Source: Candidatus Uhrbacteria bacterium
GTDB taxonomy: Bacteria > Patescibacteriota > Patescibacteriia > 2-12-FULL-60-25
Length of the DNA stretch: 20,269 nt
Assembly: GCA_903828685.1 (NCBI GenBank)
Contig: CAIKNB010000136.1
Span: forward strand, 1-20,269
Direction of reading: 5' to 3'
Under the pieces are notes generated by a model. The model ran no database searches, was not told where the DNA came from, and was given only the letters and a program-made list of their open reading frames with translations. Numbering within the stretch: the stretch's first letter is position 1; every line of letters begins with the position of its first letter. This document shows positions 6,947-13,119 of the stretch, piece after piece. A program made the translations under genes and the position numbers.

Positions 6947-8221
6947 ATGTGGGAAAAACTTCAGCAAATCTGGAATGCCAAAGAAGTGAGGAACGGTTTG
7001 CTTTTCGTGCTGGGCATGATGGTAGTCTTCCGCTTCGCGGCCCACGTTCCCTTGCCGGGCATCGACGTTGAGGCGCTGCGCCGCTTCTTCCAGGCCAACC
7101 AGGTCATGGGCATGCTCAACCTGTTTTCCGGCGGCACGATACGCAACTTCGCCATCGTGGCTCTGGGCGTGGCTCCCTACATTACGGCTTCCATTATCTT
7201 TCAGCTTTTGGGCATGATTGTCCCCAAGCTTGAGGAAATCCAGAAAGACGGAGAGTCAGGGCAGCAGCGCATCAACCAATGGACGCGTCTTTTGACCGTG
7301 CCTTTGGCCGCCCTGCAATCCTTGGCTTTGATCCAGCTCTTGCGCCAATCACAATTGCACATCCTGACCAAGACCGACACGCTGCACATCGTGACCATCA
7401 TCTTCACGGTCACGGCCGGCACCTTGCTCCTCATGTTCCTGGGCGAACTTATGTCCGAGAAGAAGGTCGGCAACGGCATCTCGCTCCTGATTTTCGCCGG
7501 CATTTTGGCCAGTTTGCCTTCCTCCCTGGGCCAGCTCATCGTGTCGTACGATTCTTCGCAGATCATGACTTATGTGGTGTACGGCGTCATCGCCATCCTG
7601 ACCATCACGGGCGTGGTATTCATCACCGAGGGCCAGCGCAACATCCCGATCCAATATGCGCGTCAGGTCCACGGCAATGCCAGCATGGGCGGAGTCGCGA
7701 CTTCATTGCCTCTGCGCGTGAACATGGCCGGCGTCATCCCAATCATTTTTGCCATCTCCATCCTGCTGTTCCCGTCGGTCATCGCGCAGTTTTTCATCCA
7801 TGCGCGCACTCCGTGGATTGCTTATGCGGCACAAGGTTTGATCACATTGCTGCAGAACCAGCTCGTGTACGGCGTGACATACTTTTTGCTGGTCGTGATG
7901 TTCACCTTCTTCTACACCGCCGTAGTGTTCCATCCTGACCGCATCGCCGAGAATCTCCAGAAACAAGGCGGCTTCATTCTGGGCATCCGTCCGGGCCAGC
8001 CTACGGCCGACTATCTGCAATCCATCATCAACCGCATCAATCTGGTTGGTGCCGTGTTCCTAGGTCTCATCGCCGTGCTGCCGCTTATGGCGCAAGGCTT
8101 GAGCGGTTCGCGCCTCTTAGCCATCGGCGGCACATCTTTGCTCATCGTGGTTTCCGTGGTCATCGAATCCATCAAGCAGATCGAAGCCCAACTCACCATG
8201 CGTAAGTACGAAGTTTATTGA
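6947..8221 (+). CDS. secY: Protein translocase subunit SecY
   Basis: SecY is the pore of the SecYEG translocon in the cytoplasmic membrane, used for secretion and membrane insertion. The length is 424 aa, with ten hydrophobic segments expected and visible. Recognisable blocks are the first helix with LLFVLGMMVVFRFAAHVPLP followed by GID, the plug region GMLNLFSGGTIRNFAIVALG, PYITASIIFQLL, GNGISLLIFAGI, the cytoplasmic C5 loop GQRNIPIQYARQVHG (which contacts SecA and the ribosome), LPLRVNMAGVIPIIFA, and the TM10 region ending QLTMRKYEVY. The start follows AT-rich sequence without a Shine-Dalgarno. It is the last gene of the ribosomal operon, since a strong terminator follows. Confidence 0.97.
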   Translation: MWEKLQQIWNAKEVRNGLLFVLGMMVVFRFAAHVPLPGIDVEALRRFFQANQVMGMLNLFSGGTIRNFAIVALGVAPYITASIIFQLLGMIVPKLEEIQKDGESGQQRINQWTRLLTVPLAALQSLALIQLLRQSQLHILTKTDTLHIVTIIFTVTAGTLLLMFLGELMSEKKVGNGISLLIFAGILASLPSSLGQLIVSYDSSQIMTYVVYGVIAILTITGVVFITEGQRNIPIQYARQVHGNASMGGVATSLPLRVNMAGVIPIIFAISILLFPSVIAQFFIHARTPWIAYAAQGLITLLQNQLVYGVTYFLLVVMFTFFYTAVVFHPDRIAENLQKQGGFILGIRPGQPTADYLQSIINRINLVGAVFLGLIAVLPLMAQGLSGSRLLAIGGTSLLIVVSVVIESIKQIEAQLTMRKYEVY

Positions 8222-8241
8222 TAGAACATAGAACAAAATTT

Positions 8242-8273
8242 AAAACACCTCGAGTTTTCTCGGGGTGTTTTTT
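8242..8273 (+). terminator. Intrinsic terminator of the ribosomal protein-secY operon
   Basis: A 13-bp stem, aaaacacctcgag (8242-8254) with ctcggggtgtttt (8259-8271), closes a TTTT loop. One T-G wobble is the only imperfection. The stem ends in a run of T, so this is a classic rho-independent terminator 20 nt after the secY stop. The A-rich 5' arm makes it potentially bidirectional. Confidence 0.92.
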
Positions 8274-8309
8274 GGCTGGATTGAGCGAAATTCTGTCCAT
8301 ACTCGATGA

Positions 8310-8338
8310 TTGACAGGATGGGCGATACATGGTATATT
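8310..8338 (+). promoter_or_regulatory. Near-consensus sigma70 promoter for the 8397 gene
   Basis: The -35 box TTGACA (8310-8315) is exact. A 17-bp spacer follows, then -10 TATATT (8333-8338, five of six), preceded by TG in the extended -10 position (TGG). Transcription would begin near 8345, giving a ~50-nt leader before the ATG at 8397. The TTG inside the -35 box also opens a long frame, but it cannot be the start if this promoter is used. Confidence 0.78.
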
Positions 8339-8396
8339 TTTGCGTCAGATTTTGTCTGCAATTCAGCTCCTTCAAAAAGAGAGTGAGGAAGACTTG

Positions 8397-8888
8397 ATGA
8401 AGAACGATACGGTTTTGCCAAATTGGGTTTGGAACAGTACGACTTTGAGGACGGGTTATGTGACGCCAAGGCCGCATGACACGTTCGGCAGTTTCCTGGT
8501 CTATGGAGGGATATTCATATTCCTCCTGATTGCATCAGGCTTCGTAATCCTCGTACTCAACGCCTTGAGTTTTCTGGTCAACGGATATTGGGCGTTTGCT
8601 GCGCCAGCCTCGGCAAGCGTGATTCTCTGGATCATGCGGAGGCTAGCCTTCCGTTGGATCCGCATGGAGTGGCGCTGTATAACGGGCGAAAAAGATCTTG
8701 AGCCCTATCTTGTCATCACGGAGTATCCAGGCAATGGAATCTATGCGACCTTGAAGAATGTTGGCCTGCGATACAACTATTGGCAGCCCGGTGAAGATTT
8801 CAGAAAAATCCGCATGGCATGCGACATCGCCGGCATATATCAACTCTGCCACAAGGGTTATAAATTGTATGAATTGAGGGATGGCTGA
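8397..8888 (+). CDS. Hypothetical small membrane protein with two TM segments
   Basis: I do not recognise a family. The chosen ATG at 8397 has a Shine-Dalgarno (GAGGA, 8385-8389) 7 nt upstream and gives 163 aa. The frame is open from a TTG at 8310, but that lies in the promoter -35 box. The first ~28 residues are polar. Two hydrophobic stretches follow (about residues 29-60 and 63-82), then a basic RRLAFRWIRMEWR segment consistent with a cytoplasmic face. A soluble ~75-residue C-terminal part contains VITEYPGNGIYATLKNVGLR and ends with an aromatic-rich YQLCHKGYKLYELRDG. Base composition looks less GC-rich than the flanking genes. The gene is a stand-alone unit with its own promoter and a terminator on each side, which fits an acquired cassette. 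Function unknown. Confidence 0.75.
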   Translation: MKNDTVLPNWVWNSTTLRTGYVTPRPHDTFGSFLVYGGIFIFLLIASGFVILVLNALSFLVNGYWAFAAPASASVILWIMRRLAFRWIRMEWRCITGEKDLEPYLVITEYPGNGIYATLKNVGLRYNYWQPGEDFRKIRMACDIAGIYQLCHKGYKLYELRDG

Positions 8889-8894
8889 CGTCTC

Positions 8895-8945
8895 GCGCAC
8901 TCGCGCTTCGACAATCCTGTCGGAGTCCGGGTGCGCTCTTTTTTT
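8895..8945 (+). terminator. Intrinsic terminator after the 8397 gene
   Basis: A long imperfect hairpin, 8895-8913 with 8918-8936 (gcgcac outer pairs, cgaca inner pairs, a two-base mismatch and wobbles between), is closed by a 4-nt loop and followed by seven T (8939-8945). It lies just after the TGA at 8886-8888. Confidence 0.85.
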
Positions 8946-9018
8946 GTCAGTTTTTGGCTTAACAGTCGAGTCTTGCACCTATGTCAGGCTTCAGGTAAGG
9001 TGATTAATCCTTCACATC

Positions 9019-9027
9019 AAGGAGGTG
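9019..9027 (+). promoter_or_regulatory. Perfect Shine-Dalgarno fixing a TTG start
   Basis: The sequence aaggaggtg is complementary to the usual anti-SD of 16S rRNA over nine bases. It lies at proper distance (AGGAGG ends 6 nt before) from a TTG codon at 9032-9034. It is the strongest ribosome-binding site in the window and identifies a non-ATG start. Confidence 0.85.
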
Positions 9028-9031
9028 TACT

Positions 9032-9976
9032 TTGGCAAAATTTCCGCATAATCCTTCAGGCAGAGCAAGCTGCGTAGTAATGGGTATGGAAGGTGAACAT
9101 CGGTTTTTTCGGCGTTTCTCCGGACCTCTTCAGGTCGGCGAAGTCCGCGTCAGCATCCAAGTTGACAACGATCGCGCCGCTCTCGATGACCGCCAAACCC
9201 GCGAGCTCAAGGAGCAAGTCGGAATCTTCGTCTCCACGCTCGGCATGGCCGTCGCGCTCCAGCCTCCGCTCATCCTGGCCCAAAGGTTGTTGCAAGAGGC
9301 GAGTCCCGAGGCTTTCAACCGCCTGCTGCGCCACGATTCGCACTACGAGTTCTGGATGATCCAGGCTTGGGCCGCCGAGACACGGCATCTGCTCCAAGTC
9401 TTGCCGGACAAAGAGCAAAGCTTGCGCGAGCAGATCAAAGGCTTGGCCGAGCGTTTGCGCCGCTGGGTCTGGAATCTCAACCTGGATGACATCCGCGGCT
9501 TGTCGGTGACGCCTGAACCCCAGGCTGACTGGCTGCATCTCTCCGCCTATGCCAGGCAGCAGGCGGCCAACCGCATGCGTCAGGCCAAGCATGCGTCAGC
9601 CGAATCGCCACTAGTCGAGCCCAGGCCGCTTCTGGCCTGGCTCAGGCAGCGTTTGCGCAGCGGCGGCAAGCTTTTGTTCATCGGCGTGGAACGGACAAAC
9701 GAACTAGCTGCGCTGTGCCTGGATCAGGTCGTGGCGCAGAACGTCGTCCAGGTAGATTTCGCCCAAGACGTCGGCGAGCTGTCGCGCTCCAAGCAAGCTA
9801 TCGAAAACCGCGATGTCATCGGCGTCATGTTGCTTGGCCTGGATCAGATTTCTACGGAACAGCTCCAAGCTTGGTGCTACGACGTCGATACGCCGTGCGT
9901 GAGCCTCGACGAGGTTTCGCTCGAAGCCGCGGAGGCCGCGCTCCAGACTCTGGAGGCCGCGCTCCAGAAAAGATAG
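9032..9976 (+). CDS. Hypothetical soluble 314-aa protein, helical N-part and Rossmann-like C-part
   Basis: I do not recognise the family. The start is TTG at 9032, supported by the perfect Shine-Dalgarno at 9019-9027. No signal peptide or TM segment is seen. Residues 20-45 (EHRFFRRFSGPLQVGEVRVS) look like a short beta-rich N-terminal element. Residues 55-190 are strongly helical and charged, with several Trp, including WMIQAWAAE and RRWVWNLNLDDIRG. Residues 210-300 alternate strand and helix: GGKLLFIGVERTNELAALCL, a VVQVDFAQD strand, DVIGVMLLGLD, and TPCVSLDEV. This is the layout of a small Rossmann- or receiver-like domain, somewhat like the C-terminal domain called DUF2325, but without its cysteine-rich signature; the resemblance is weak. 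The last ~20 residues are a two-copy EAALQ helix. The gene forms a single unit between two terminators. Confidence 0.8.
   Translation: MAKFPHNPSGRASCVVMGMEGEHRFFRRFSGPLQVGEVRVSIQVDNDRAALDDRQTRELKEQVGIFVSTLGMAVALQPPLILAQRLLQEASPEAFNRLLRHDSHYEFWMIQAWAAETRHLLQVLPDKEQSLREQIKGLAERLRRWVWNLNLDDIRGLSVTPEPQADWLHLSAYARQQAANRMRQAKHASAESPLVEPRPLLAWLRQRLRSGGKLLFIGVERTNELAALCLDQVVAQNVVQVDFAQDVGELSRSKQAIENRDVIGVMLLGLDQISTEQLQAWCYDVDTPCVSLDEVSLEAAEAALQTLEAALQKR
9931..9968 (+). repeat. Short direct repeat in the 3' end of the 9032 gene
   Basis: The 17-nt sequence ggaggccgcgctccaga occurs at 9931-9947 and again at 9952-9968, a 21-bp period (seven codons). It encodes a repeated EAALQ helical heptad near the C terminus. 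Confidence 0.8.
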
Positions 9977-9989
9977 CTACTCTTCCTCT

Positions 9990-10023
9990 AACAGAGTTCC
10001 GTGGCGCGGAACTCTGTTTTTTT
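9990..10023 (+). terminator. Intrinsic terminator after the 9032 gene
   Basis: A 12-bp perfect stem (9990-10001 with 10007-10018; core acagagttccg / cggaactctgt) has a 5-nt loop and runs into seven T (10017-10023). It lies 14 nt after the TAG stop. Confidence 0.93.
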
Positions 10024-10079
10024 ATGCAGCCGCGGGTGCAATTTTGTTCCGTTTGGCGTACCATGTGCAGGCTTTTCAT

Positions 10080-10913
10080 ATGGCGGATACGCAGCATAAG
10101 TCGCGGAACGAGCAGCGCTACAGGCGCTGGTTTTTGGTCGCTTCGTATCTGTTGGCTGGCTGCGGTCTCATGCTTATCGTCGAACATGCGCGCCACGAAT
10201 CACTGCACTTCACCTCTCCTGGTTTGAGCAGCTGGTATTACGCCATCATCCTAGTGGCGGCTTGCGGTGTGGGTCTGCTGATGTTCAAGCGCATCCGTTC
10301 CTGGATGTTCTGGGAGACGATCTTCACCGTCACTCTATTCTTGGGCGTCTGGTTTGCTTGCCTGCTGTTGTTGCCGTTGGTTTGGGCTTTGCTTGTGGCT
10401 GCGGCGCTGACTTTGGCGCATCTGTTCATCCGTTCCGTGTTTTTGCATGATGCGTTTTATCTCGTCGGGGCCATGGGTGTGGCCATGAGCTTCGCCACCT
10501 GGCTAGCGCCCGAGGTGTTGCTGGTGTTTTTGGTGGGCTTTGTCCTATATGATATGGTTGCCGGACCTCCGGGAGGACCGATTCAGGAATTGGCCCGGAG
10601 CCTGGTCAGTAAAGGCATCGTTCCCGGTCTGGTCGTGCCCAGCGACTGGCGCGAGTTCGTGGCGTCCGTGGATACAGCCGTGAAAAGCCACAGCGCCTTG
10701 CTCGGCGCCGGCGATCTCATCTTGCCTCTGGCCGTGGTGGCGCGCGCCGCTGATGCCGGAGTCTGCCAGGCCGCAATCGTCTTGGTCGGCCTCTTGGTCG
10801 GCGTCCTGATCTTGGCGCGAACTCCCTCGCAGCATCCGCGCGCGGCTCTGCCCGCCCTGGCTGCCGGCGTGGGCGTTCCCTTTGTCGTCTTAATGCTGGT
10901 GTCATGGATATGA
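10080..10913 (+). CDS. Presenilin/signal-peptide-peptidase-like intramembrane aspartyl protease
   Basis: The 277-aa protein has nine hydrophobic segments (about 17-35, 51-70, 75-99, 100-120, 124-143, 145-162, 205-225, 228-247, 256-277) and all three catalytic motifs of the GxGD (MEROPS A22) proteases in order. These are a YD motif in TM6 (VLYDMVAG, Asp158), GAGD in TM7 (LLGAGDLILPLAV, Asp212) and PAL in TM9 (LPALAAGV, residues 258-260). Such enzymes use the two Asp residues to cut TM helices, for example leftover signal peptides. The size and compact loops resemble the archaeal/bacterial presenilin homologues. I chose ATG 10080; an in-frame TTG at 10044 would add 12 residues and also lacks a ribosome-binding site. 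It lies 13 nt upstream of adk and probably heads an operon with adk, map and ruvX. The substrate is unknown; a link to Sec-exported proteins is inference. Confidence 0.85.
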   Translation: MADTQHKSRNEQRYRRWFLVASYLLAGCGLMLIVEHARHESLHFTSPGLSSWYYAIILVAACGVGLLMFKRIRSWMFWETIFTVTLFLGVWFACLLLLPLVWALLVAAALTLAHLFIRSVFLHDAFYLVGAMGVAMSFATWLAPEVLLVFLVGFVLYDMVAGPPGGPIQELARSLVSKGIVPGLVVPSDWREFVASVDTAVKSHSALLGAGDLILPLAVVARAADAGVCQAAIVLVGLLVGVLILARTPSQHPRAALPALAAGVGVPFVVLMLVSWI

Positions 10914-10926
10914 AATCACTTCCGTT

Positions 10927-11586
10927 ATGATGCGAAAAAAGATCCGAGCTGTACTCTTCGGACCCCAAGGCTGCGGCAAAGGCACCCAGGGCCAGCTTTT
11001 GGCTGATCGCTTTGACATCCCGTTGGTCGGCGCCGGCGATTTGTTCCGCGCCGAAATCTCGGCGCGCTCGCAGCTGGGCAAACTTGCCAAGAGCTATGTA
11101 GAGCGTGGCGCCCTGGCTCCGGATGAGCTGGTCAATGCGGTCATCGCAAGCCAGTTGAAAAAAGTGGATTTGGCGCGCGGCTTTATCCTGGATGGCTATC
11201 CGCGCAATGTGGAGCAGGCGACGTATCTGGACCGCATCATGAAAGTGAATTTAGCGGTATATATTAAGATTACGGACAAGGAGGCGGTGCGCCGGCTCCA
11301 AGGTCGGCGCCAATGCAAGCGTTGCAAGTTCACTTACCATTTGACTGATGCGCCGCCGGCCAAATCCAACCAATGCTCTATCTGCGGCGGTCCGCTCATC
11401 AAGCGTGCCGATGACACCGAAGACATCATCCGCCAGCGTTTGGCCGCTTTCCATTTCATGACCGAACCGTTGGTCTCATATTATCGCCAGCAAGGAGTGC
11501 TGCTTCCCATCAACGGCGAGCAGTCCATCCCGTATGTGTTCGAGGACATGATTAAGAAGATGGCTAAGTTGGGATTCCAGAGTTGA
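10927..11586 (+). CDS. adk: Adenylate kinase, zinc-lid type
   Basis: Adk interconverts ATP + AMP and 2 ADP in the cytoplasm. The P-loop is FGPQGCGKGTQ (residues 11-21; most bacteria have GPPGAGKGTQ). AMP-site elements are GAGDLFR (35-41) and DGYPRN (89-94). The LID carries four cysteines in two CxxC pairs (Cys130, 133, 150, 153), marking the zinc-stabilised form, followed by KRADDTEDIIRQRL with the conserved Arg/Asp-Asp. The 219-aa length is normal for long-form Adk. Two ATG codons in tandem (10927, 10930) make the exact start uncertain by one residue. Neither has a Shine-Dalgarno. In many bacteria adk and map follow secY directly. Here they are still adjacent to each other but are displaced from secY by about 2.7 kb. 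Confidence 0.96.
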   Translation: MMRKKIRAVLFGPQGCGKGTQGQLLADRFDIPLVGAGDLFRAEISARSQLGKLAKSYVERGALAPDELVNAVIASQLKKVDLARGFILDGYPRNVEQATYLDRIMKVNLAVYIKITDKEAVRRLQGRRQCKRCKFTYHLTDAPPAKSNQCSICGGPLIKRADDTEDIIRQRLAAFHFMTEPLVSYYRQQGVLLPINGEQSIPYVFEDMIKKMAKLGFQS

Positions 11587-11602
11587 AGCAAAATAATGAA
11601 TT

Positions 11603-12385
11603 ATGAGTTTGATAAAAACACCGCAAGAAATCGAGGCCCTCAAGCAAGGCGGAGCCATACTCTCGCGCGCTTTGCGTGCGGCCATGGACGCTTGCGTGGT
11701 CGGAGCTTCGACCAAGCAGATAGACCGCGCCGCGCACGGGTCGCTTAAACGCGAAGGCGCCGAACCGTCCTTTCTGGGCTATCGCATTGCGCCGAGCGAC
11801 CCGGCGTTTCCGGCCACGGTCTGCATCTCCATCAACGACGAGGTGGTGCACGGTTTGGCTGTGCCTGAACGTTTCATCAAAGACGGTGACGTGGTGAGTC
11901 TGGATATTGGCGCTTGGTATTTGGGTTTGTGCACGGATATGGCGGCGACTGTGATTGCAGGATCCGCTGCGCCTCAAGCCGCGGCTTTGGTCAGCGACAC
12001 GCGCGCATCATTAGAGAAGGCGCTTGAGACCGTTCAGGCAGGCAAGCGGCTCGGCGACATCGGCGCAGCCATCGAAGACTATCTCAAGCCGCGGCACTAT
12101 GGCATCGTGCGCGATTTGGTGGGGCATGGCGTGGGGCATGCCGTGCATGAAGATCCGCAAATTCCGAATTATCGCGAGTCGCATGCGCCCAAAGTCGCAC
12201 TGCAATCCGGCATGGTCTTGGCCATCGAACCCATGGTGACTCTCGGCGATTGGCGCGTGGCGCAAAAAGACGACGGTTGGACCATCGTGACGCGCGATCA
12301 TTCGCTGGCCGCGCACTGGGAAGTCACGATTGCGGTTACAGACTTGGGATATGAGCTGATAACTCCATGGCCTGACAAACTATGA
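11603..12385 (+). CDS. map: Methionine aminopeptidase, type I
   Basis: MetAP removes the initiator Met from nascent proteins after deformylation. All five metal ligands are found by comparison with the E. coli enzyme: Asp101 and Asp112 (SLDIGAWYLGLCTDMAAT), His175 (VGHGVGHAVHE), Glu209 (AIEPM) and Glu240 (HWEVTIAVT). His83 in VVHG is the substrate-binding histidine. The FEHT motif at the last ligand is usually followed by His but reads EVT here, a mild departure. At 260 aa it has the type Ia size, without an N-terminal SH3-binding extension. Its last four bases overlap ruvX (ATGA, 12382-12385), implying translational coupling. Confidence 0.95.
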   Translation: MSLIKTPQEIEALKQGGAILSRALRAAMDACVVGASTKQIDRAAHGSLKREGAEPSFLGYRIAPSDPAFPATVCISINDEVVHGLAVPERFIKDGDVVSLDIGAWYLGLCTDMAATVIAGSAAPQAAALVSDTRASLEKALETVQAGKRLGDIGAAIEDYLKPRHYGIVRDLVGHGVGHAVHEDPQIPNYRESHAPKVALQSGMVLAIEPMVTLGDWRVAQKDDGWTIVTRDHSLAAHWEVTIAVTDLGYELITPWPDKL

Positions 12386-12777
12386 GAATCCTTGGCATTG
12401 ATTATGGGGAAAAGCGCGTGGGGCTAGCGCTCGGTGATACGGATTCGCGTATCGCTACTCCATGGGCCGTGCTTCCGAATGAAGGCACGTTGCCGCTTTT
12501 GGCCAAGATCCACGAAATCGTGACACGCGATTTGGTCGAAGAAATCGTCATCGGCGTGCCGCGTCCGCTCAAAGACCAAGCCAGCGAGAATCAGCAAGTC
12601 CGCGCCGTCCGGGAATTCGCGGAGCAACTCAAGGGTCTGGGTTTGCCCATCCATGAAGAAAATGAAGTCTTGACCTCGCGCTTAGCCGCGCAGCAAGCTG
12701 CCCAGGCAGGGGAGCGCGACAAGCGCGATGATCTGGCGGCGGCAAATATCCTGCAAACGTGGTTAGATAGACATTGA
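12382..12777 (+). CDS. ruvX: RuvX/YqgF family Holliday junction resolvase-like nuclease
   Basis: YqgF-type proteins have an RNase H fold. They act in 16S rRNA 5'-end maturation and/or as Holliday-junction resolvases. The length of 131 aa is typical. The N-terminal catalytic Asp lies in ILGIDYGEKRVGLALGD (Asp7), the second acidic site in HEENEVLTSRLA, and the C-terminal acidic pair in DKRDDLAAANILQTWLD (Asp116-117). The VIGVPRPL motif matches the usual VhGLPhxh. It overlaps map by 4 nt and precedes the next gene by 3 nt, so it belongs to the same transcript. Confidence 0.93.
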   Translation: MRILGIDYGEKRVGLALGDTDSRIATPWAVLPNEGTLPLLAKIHEIVTRDLVEEIVIGVPRPLKDQASENQQVRAVREFAEQLKGLGLPIHEENEVLTSRLAAQQAAQAGERDKRDDLAAANILQTWLDRH

Positions 12778-12780
12778 AAT

Positions 12781-13119
12781 ATGGAAAAACACCCACTCCA
12801 CATCAAGAACCCGGAGCTCCAGACGTCTCCTGATGTCCAAAAGGCAGTCAAGCGTCAGGAACGGCTCACGGGCGAGCGCGTCCCGAACAACCCTTTCGAA
12901 CGCATCGAGGCATATATGTCACGCCTCGAAAAAGTGTTCCTGCATCCAGACCCGGAAAAACGTCGCCGCAACATAGAGATGCTGCGGCCCAAGATATATG
13001 CTGCGCTACTCATCAAAAAAGAGGATTTCCCGGAGAGCTACTTCGAGCTCCAAAAACGCATTGCCCGCGAACGCGGCCAGGCTGTGGAGGAAATCCCGAT
13101 CAGATCCGCGAGCAGATGA
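12781..13119 (+). CDS. CPR-type hypothetical protein, N-terminal fragment (gene broken by frameshift)
   Basis: This is the first part of a single ~612-residue protein continuing to 14617. The real reading runs to about 13098 in this frame (ending VEEIP), after which the frame gives only IRSASR and a stop. One base earlier, the sequence continues as DQIREQMMDVAIQDQ, then KASLDAWID (about 13098-13169). One base earlier again it continues as YLTSEDAVYPAWFKYYAW to the end at 14617. Each break is explained by one missing base: ccg-gat read as ccgat, and gat-tac read as gatac. The N-terminal part is charged and helical (NPFERIEAYMSRLEKVF, PDPEKRRRNIEML). It starts 3 nt after ruvX. I recall similar long proteins in many Patescibacteria genomes but know no function. 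Confidence 0.75.
   Translation: MEKHPLHIKNPELQTSPDVQKAVKRQERLTGERVPNNPFERIEAYMSRLEKVFLHPDPEKRRRNIEMLRPKIYAALLIKKEDFPESYFELQKRIARERGQAVEEIPIRSASR

What the first reader, a model, noticed from the sequence alone, without database searches (positions are those of the whole stretch)
10080..10913. Bacterial presenilin-like GxGD protease upstream of adk-map
Nine TM segments plus YD (Asp158), GAGD (Asp212) and PAL (258-260) reproduce the full catalytic layout of presenilin and signal peptide peptidase in only 277 residues. Such enzymes are well known in eukaryotes and archaea and are less studied in bacteria. Its operon partner map acts on nascent-protein N termini, and secY lies 2 kb upstream, so a role in clearing signal-peptide remnants is a plausible inference. 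The motifs are clear, but substrate and activity are not.
Basis: partly seen in the sequence, partly recalled or inferred. Interest (0 to 1): 0.72.

Follow-up and report, generated by a model that had tools for sequence, protein, structure and literature searches.

The report
Bacterial presenilin-like membrane protease beside adk
A tiny uncultured bacterium carries a compact relative of the human presenilin protease between its protein-export gene and two housekeeping genes, and some related bacteria have kept the gene in the same place after losing a residue needed to cut proteins.

The parts
10080..10913 (+). presenilin-like diaspartyl intramembrane protease gene, 277 aa
10548..10553 (+). 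YD motif, Tyr157-Asp158, predicted TM6
   Evidence: YD in 51 of 52 rows; helix 144-161 in the model
10704..10715 (+). GAGD motif, Asp212, start of predicted TM7
   Evidence: GxGD in 52 of 52 rows; helix 210-226 in the model
10842..10853 (+). AALP (255-258), homologous position of the PALP of canonical members, start of TM9
   Evidence: profile alignment with 15 canonical copies; counts
9990..10018 (+). terminator-like hairpin (13 pairs, 3-nt loop, T run) between the upstream ORF and the protease gene
   Evidence: consensus match only (10 such sites found in 8000-13000, 5.8 expected in shuffles)
10914..10926 (+). 13-nt gap between the protease stop and the adk start
10927..11586 (+). adk, adenylate kinase
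   Evidence: TIGR01351 over its cut-off
11603..12385 (+). map, type I methionyl aminopeptidase
   Evidence: TIGR00500 over its cut-off
6947..8221 (+). secY, upstream border of the conserved slot
   Evidence: TIGR00967 over its cut-off

Best explanation
A compact nine-helix intramembrane aspartyl protease of the presenilin/SPP (A22) clan with presenilin-type orientation (N terminus in the cytoplasm, C terminus outside). Asp158 (TM6) and Asp212 (TM7) would activate a water molecule and cut a substrate transmembrane helix that unwinds against the short strands of the TM6-TM7 loop and the TM9 AALP segment. With this orientation the natural substrates should be type I segments (N outside, C in the cytoplasm), so a membrane-protein quality-control or release protease made together with Adk and Map is more likely than a signal-peptide-remnant peptidase. 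Shown: ORF, motifs, conservation, gene order. Predicted: fold. Inferred: activity, orientation (charge rule), substrate class, co-expression.
Against: Direct hmmscan of the window protein gives no PF06550 match at E up to 10, and only 7 of the 24 aligned rows match it at E up to 1. The first Pro of PALP is Ala. No activity data and no Asp-Asp distance. Six of 21 slot copies lack the TM7 Asp and 11 of 36 family genomes have an empty slot, so proteolysis cannot be essential across the family. In the charge test one of 21 slot copies, G018, is a tie.
Confidence: 0.62

Rival explanations
1. Membrane scaffold or chaperone: the conserved job of the slot protein is to bind transmembrane helices near the translocon, and proteolysis is an add-on that some lineages keep and others lose. 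The window copy would be one that still cuts.
Against: In the window's own clade 51 of 52 rows keep both Asp at 34-66% identity to the window protein, which points to selection for catalysis there. dS is near saturation. One of the three losses rests on G018, the weakest member; on the gene-family tree starred branches force only two. Foldseek alone is weak for the inactive model (best E 0.09).
Confidence: 0.22
2. Signal-peptide peptidase: it clears signal-peptide remnants after signal peptidase I.
For: Best structural row is SPPL2a. secY is a near neighbour. Signal peptidase I (PF10502) matches in 53 of 57 relatives (none in the window's own 91% complete assembly) and SppA (PF01343) in only 2 of 57.
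Confidence: 0.1
3. Leader-ORF role: the reading frame is kept mainly because its translation is coupled to adk, and its protein product matters little.
For: Overlap or short gap to adk in 20 of 20 slot copies, estimated -7 to +82 nt.
Against: Amino-acid-level constraint, kept fold and motifs; 11 of 36 family genomes do without it.
Confidence: 0.04
4. Not a protease relative at all: a membrane protein that shares motifs by chance.
For: No direct Pfam match.
Confidence: 0.02

Closest known systems
Archaeal presenilin homologue PSH / MCMJR1 (Methanoculleus marisnigri; PDB 4hyc, 4hyg, 4y6k)
   Different: No match between the window clade profile and its sequence at E up to 10; archaeal; its gene neighbours were not examined here
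Human presenilin-1, catalytic subunit of gamma-secretase
   Different: About 15% identity; AALP for PALP; shorter TM6-TM7 loop (recalled for PSEN1); partner subunits not looked for
Human SPP-like protease SPPL2a
   Different: Opposite predicted orientation (against PMC7768045, passages)
Patescibacteria PF06550 copies outside the slot (16 used, for example G041, G043, G044, G235)
   Same: Homologous over 231 columns (15 of the 16), YD and GxGD in 16 of 16
   Different: Separate side of the gene tree (support 94/80), found by the PF06550 model, which the window protein is not
iRhom pseudoproteases (rhomboid superfamily)
   Same: Analogy only, for the inactive slot copies: an intramembrane-protease relative without key catalytic residues (PMC3149277, abstract in search listing)
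   Different: Rhomboid serine-protease family, animal proteins

Membership tests
Presenilin/SPP intramembrane aspartyl proteases (A22 clan) | Nine transmembrane helices | tested here: met
   Predicted model, (prediction, not experiment)
Presenilin/SPP intramembrane aspartyl proteases (A22 clan) | YD in TM6 and GxGD in TM7 | tested here: met
   D158 and D212 in the right helices; both kept in 51 of 52 rows
Presenilin/SPP intramembrane aspartyl proteases (A22 clan) | PAL motif at the start of TM9 | tested here: inconclusive
   Homologous columns read AALP. Active archaeal PSH also lacks an obvious PAL (PMC2947513, passages), so the motif does not decide membership of prokaryotic proteins
Presenilin/SPP intramembrane aspartyl proteases (A22 clan) | Presenilin fold | tested here: met
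Presenilin/SPP intramembrane aspartyl proteases (A22 clan) | Sequence homology to PF06550 members | tested here: met
   A1 against A5 99.8%, E 1.4e-29; 7 of 24 rows match PF06550 at E up to 1, best 4e-9. The window protein alone does not
Presenilin/SPP intramembrane aspartyl proteases (A22 clan) | Asp-dependent intramembrane cleavage | not testable with these tools
   needs purified protein
Signal peptide peptidase (SPP/SPPL) subgroup | N-out, C-in orientation, type II substrates | tested here: not met
   Charge rule gives N-in in 52 of 52 rows, p 0.0067 for the window; criterion from PMC7768045 passages. A prediction, not an experiment; no known SPP was run through the same count as a control
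Presenilin subgroup | N-in, C-out orientation | tested here: met
   by charge rule only
Presenilin subgroup | Works in a complex with nicastrin, APH-1 and PEN-2 | not tested
   no search made
Type IV prepilin peptidases (A24, also GxGD) | A24 fold and Asp arrangement | tested here: inconclusive
   no A24 model; fold comparison lists presenilin-type chains first

The most novel reading that the evidence does not exclude
Bacterial pseudo-presenilins: one orthologous slot between secY and adk holds a presenilin-fold protein whose conserved job does not need proteolysis. Two, probably three, lineages lost the TM7 Asp (the largest inactive clade mostly the TM6 Asp too) while keeping fold, orientation, closeness to adk and amino-acid constraint, so the presenilin fold would act as a transmembrane-helix binder in membrane-protein biogenesis, with cutting as a losable extra. 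The window copy is the intact form.
Probability: 0.45. Interest if true: 0.78.

Novelty: new variant of a known kind. Interest (0 to 1): 0.55.

Why it matters
Presenilin-type proteases are studied mainly in eukaryotes and archaea (recalled; the papers seen here deal with those). This gives a small, single-gene bacterial form with a fixed genomic address, and beside it orthologues that lost the catalytic Asp more than once but are kept. Comparing the two within one bacterial family is a natural experiment on what the presenilin fold does besides cutting.

Tried and rejected
Direct Pfam, NCBIfam and PDB sequence searches with the window protein gave no family; the A1 profile against PDB sequences gave two unrelated rows. 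The scan of genome contigs with the single protein found no relative; with the alignment it found six loci. I considered prepilin peptidase (A24) and a chance motif and dropped both.

I considered that empty slots hide diverged copies: in 11 of 36 family genomes secY is followed by adk with no room for the gene. Two of these need a note: G009 has about 390 nt between the two genes, and in G019 adk is split over two contigs, the first part next to secY. 4 of 36 (G011, G017, G022, G028) could not be judged because adk was not found or the contig ends. The adk search covered 30 of the 57 genomes, among them all 15 family genomes without a clade match. In G037 (another family) the hydrophobic ORF in that place reads to me as a cation-exchanger-like protein (no family search made).

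The co-occurrence test with SppA, M50 and signal peptidase I did not separate genomes with and without the gene. Signal peptidase I was not found in the window's own assembly, and its best M50 match there is modest (E 1.4e-6); the assembly is 91% complete.

Limits of the inactive-copy case: Foldseek alone on the inactive model is weak (best E 0.09); the case rests and on profile comparison (99.3%, E 4.9e-20). G018 is the weakest slot member (29 bits; tie in the charge test; very long branch); without it two independent losses remain. dS is near saturation, and infinite for some pairs.

Rows dropped: P0002 (the window's own fragment) from A1 and A4; of 18 non-slot PF06550 copies 16 were used (G117, weak, and G153, same genus as G113, left out) and 15 in A5 (G037 left out too); 12 of the further homologues were picked by hand for the tree.

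Literature: 20 of 43 listed; 20 of 20; 1; 0; 20 of 48; 3; 10 of 35; 20 of 451. Among the rows listed I saw no paper on a presenilin-like protease of Patescibacteria or on inactive bacterial presenilins. Only listings were seen, apart from passages of PMC2947513, PMC7768045, PMC9263693, PMC10679502 and PMC9239227; most subscription papers are not held, and Raut et al. 2021 on archaeal roots of these proteases was not held. This is not proof of absence.

Full report
What is there. The window is part of a Candidatus Uhrbacteria-type Patescibacteria genome: G002, in the same genus as the window, has its copy on a contig of the same length (391247) as the named record JACRQE010000003.1. The order is ribosomal protein genes, secY, two unidentified ORFs, the finding, adk, map, then a gene I read as ruvX (ribosomal and ruvX names are my reading, no family search). 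The ORF 10080-10913 encodes 277 aa and ends 13 nt before adk. A 13-pair terminator-like hairpin at 9990-10018 lies between the preceding ORF and this gene, so the transcription unit here is probably protease-adk-map and not the secY operon (inference from a consensus match).

Catalytic layout. Asp158 and Asp212 lie where they should. Both are kept in 51 of 52 rows (window plus 51 homologues); P0044 has YA. In the profile alignment the PALP of canonical members falls on 255-258, AALP in the window. In the clade these columns read AAL in 37 of 52 and PAL in 8 of 52; at 258-260 PAL stands in 24 of 52. PSH also lacks an obvious PAL and is active (PMC2947513, passages), so the missing proline does not speak against activity. 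The Asp-Asp distance could not be measured.

Orientation. I counted Lys and Arg in the loops of either side, leaving out the long loop between TM6 and TM7. The N terminus is predicted inside in 52 of 52 rows of the intact clade, in 20 of 20 of the inactive clade and in 16 of 16 canonical copies; of the 21 slot copies 20 are N-in and G018 is a tie. For the window the count is 10 against 1 with the loop borders and 9 against 0 with tighter ones, permutation p 0.0067 (borders chosen by me from the model). Known SPPs and presenilins were not run as a control. Presenilins are N-in and cut type I segments; SPPs are N-out and cut type II segments (PMC7768045, passages). Signal peptides are type II in this sense (established knowledge), so the signal-peptide-remnant role is unlikely.

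Gene order. Of 57 relatives 22 have a match to the clade profile. 21 of these are in the window's family (36 genomes), in front of adk in each. In 19 of the 20 besides the window secY is seen upstream on the same strand; in G025 secY was not found on the short contig. In 11 of 36 secY is followed by adk with no room for the gene, and 4 of 36 could not be judged. G044, in another family, has a copy with none of the window's other genes near it. In the 20 slot copies the estimated gap to adk is -4 nt in 12 and between -7 and +82 nt in the other 8; the distance to secY varies widely. In a phylum-wide sample 10 of 379 genomes match the clade profile, four of them in the window's family, and 12 of 379 match PF06550: presenilin-type proteins are sparse in this phylum, and the adk-linked form was seen only in the window's family, though the neighbourhoods of the six phylum-wide matches outside it were not examined.

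How it most likely works. The window copy is most likely an active presenilin-oriented intramembrane aspartyl protease acting on type I segments (0.62). The inactive orthologues suggest that binding of transmembrane helices is a function kept without cutting. Substrate and partners are unknown; the neighbourhood (secY, adk, map) suggests co-expression and does not name a pathway, since adk and map stand behind secY in many bacteria (recalled) and also in the family genomes without this gene.

Novelty. The protein class is known, and sister sequences are already annotated as presenilin-like by databases. What I did not see in the search listings named under Tried and rejected is the adk-linked clade and its repeated loss of the catalytic Asp.

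Noticed in passing
L026, L027, L028, L029, L018, L023 (slot copies of G032, G016, G035, G018, G025, G006): Presenilin-like orthologues between secY and adk without the TM7 catalytic Asp; 20 homologues of the largest group in public data (P0054-P0073), none named as presenilin.
   Followed up: yes
window 9990-10018: Terminator-like hairpin with a 13-pair stem directly upstream of the protease gene, separating it from the secY side.
   Followed up: partly
window 9032-9976: Unidentified 314-aa ORF between secY and the protease gene; at E up to 1e-4 seen only in the three same-genus relatives (G001, G002, G003) among the loci compared; no Pfam family.
   Followed up: no
G006:C97 and G025:C77 (L088, L087): Two genomes with an inactive slot copy carry a second, canonical PF06550 copy with both Asp at another place.
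   Followed up: partly
L065 491-1480 (G037, another family): A hydrophobic ORF that reads like a cation exchanger sits directly before adk, in the place used by the presenilin-like gene elsewhere.
   Followed up: no
57 relatives searched: SppA (PF01343) matches in only 2 of 57 genomes while signal peptidase I matches in 53 and M50 proteases in 57: how this group disposes of signal peptides is open.
   Followed up: partly
G012:C27 (L063, L082), G021:C4 (L071, L081): adk matches in two pieces in these two empty-slot genomes; cause not examined.
   Followed up: no
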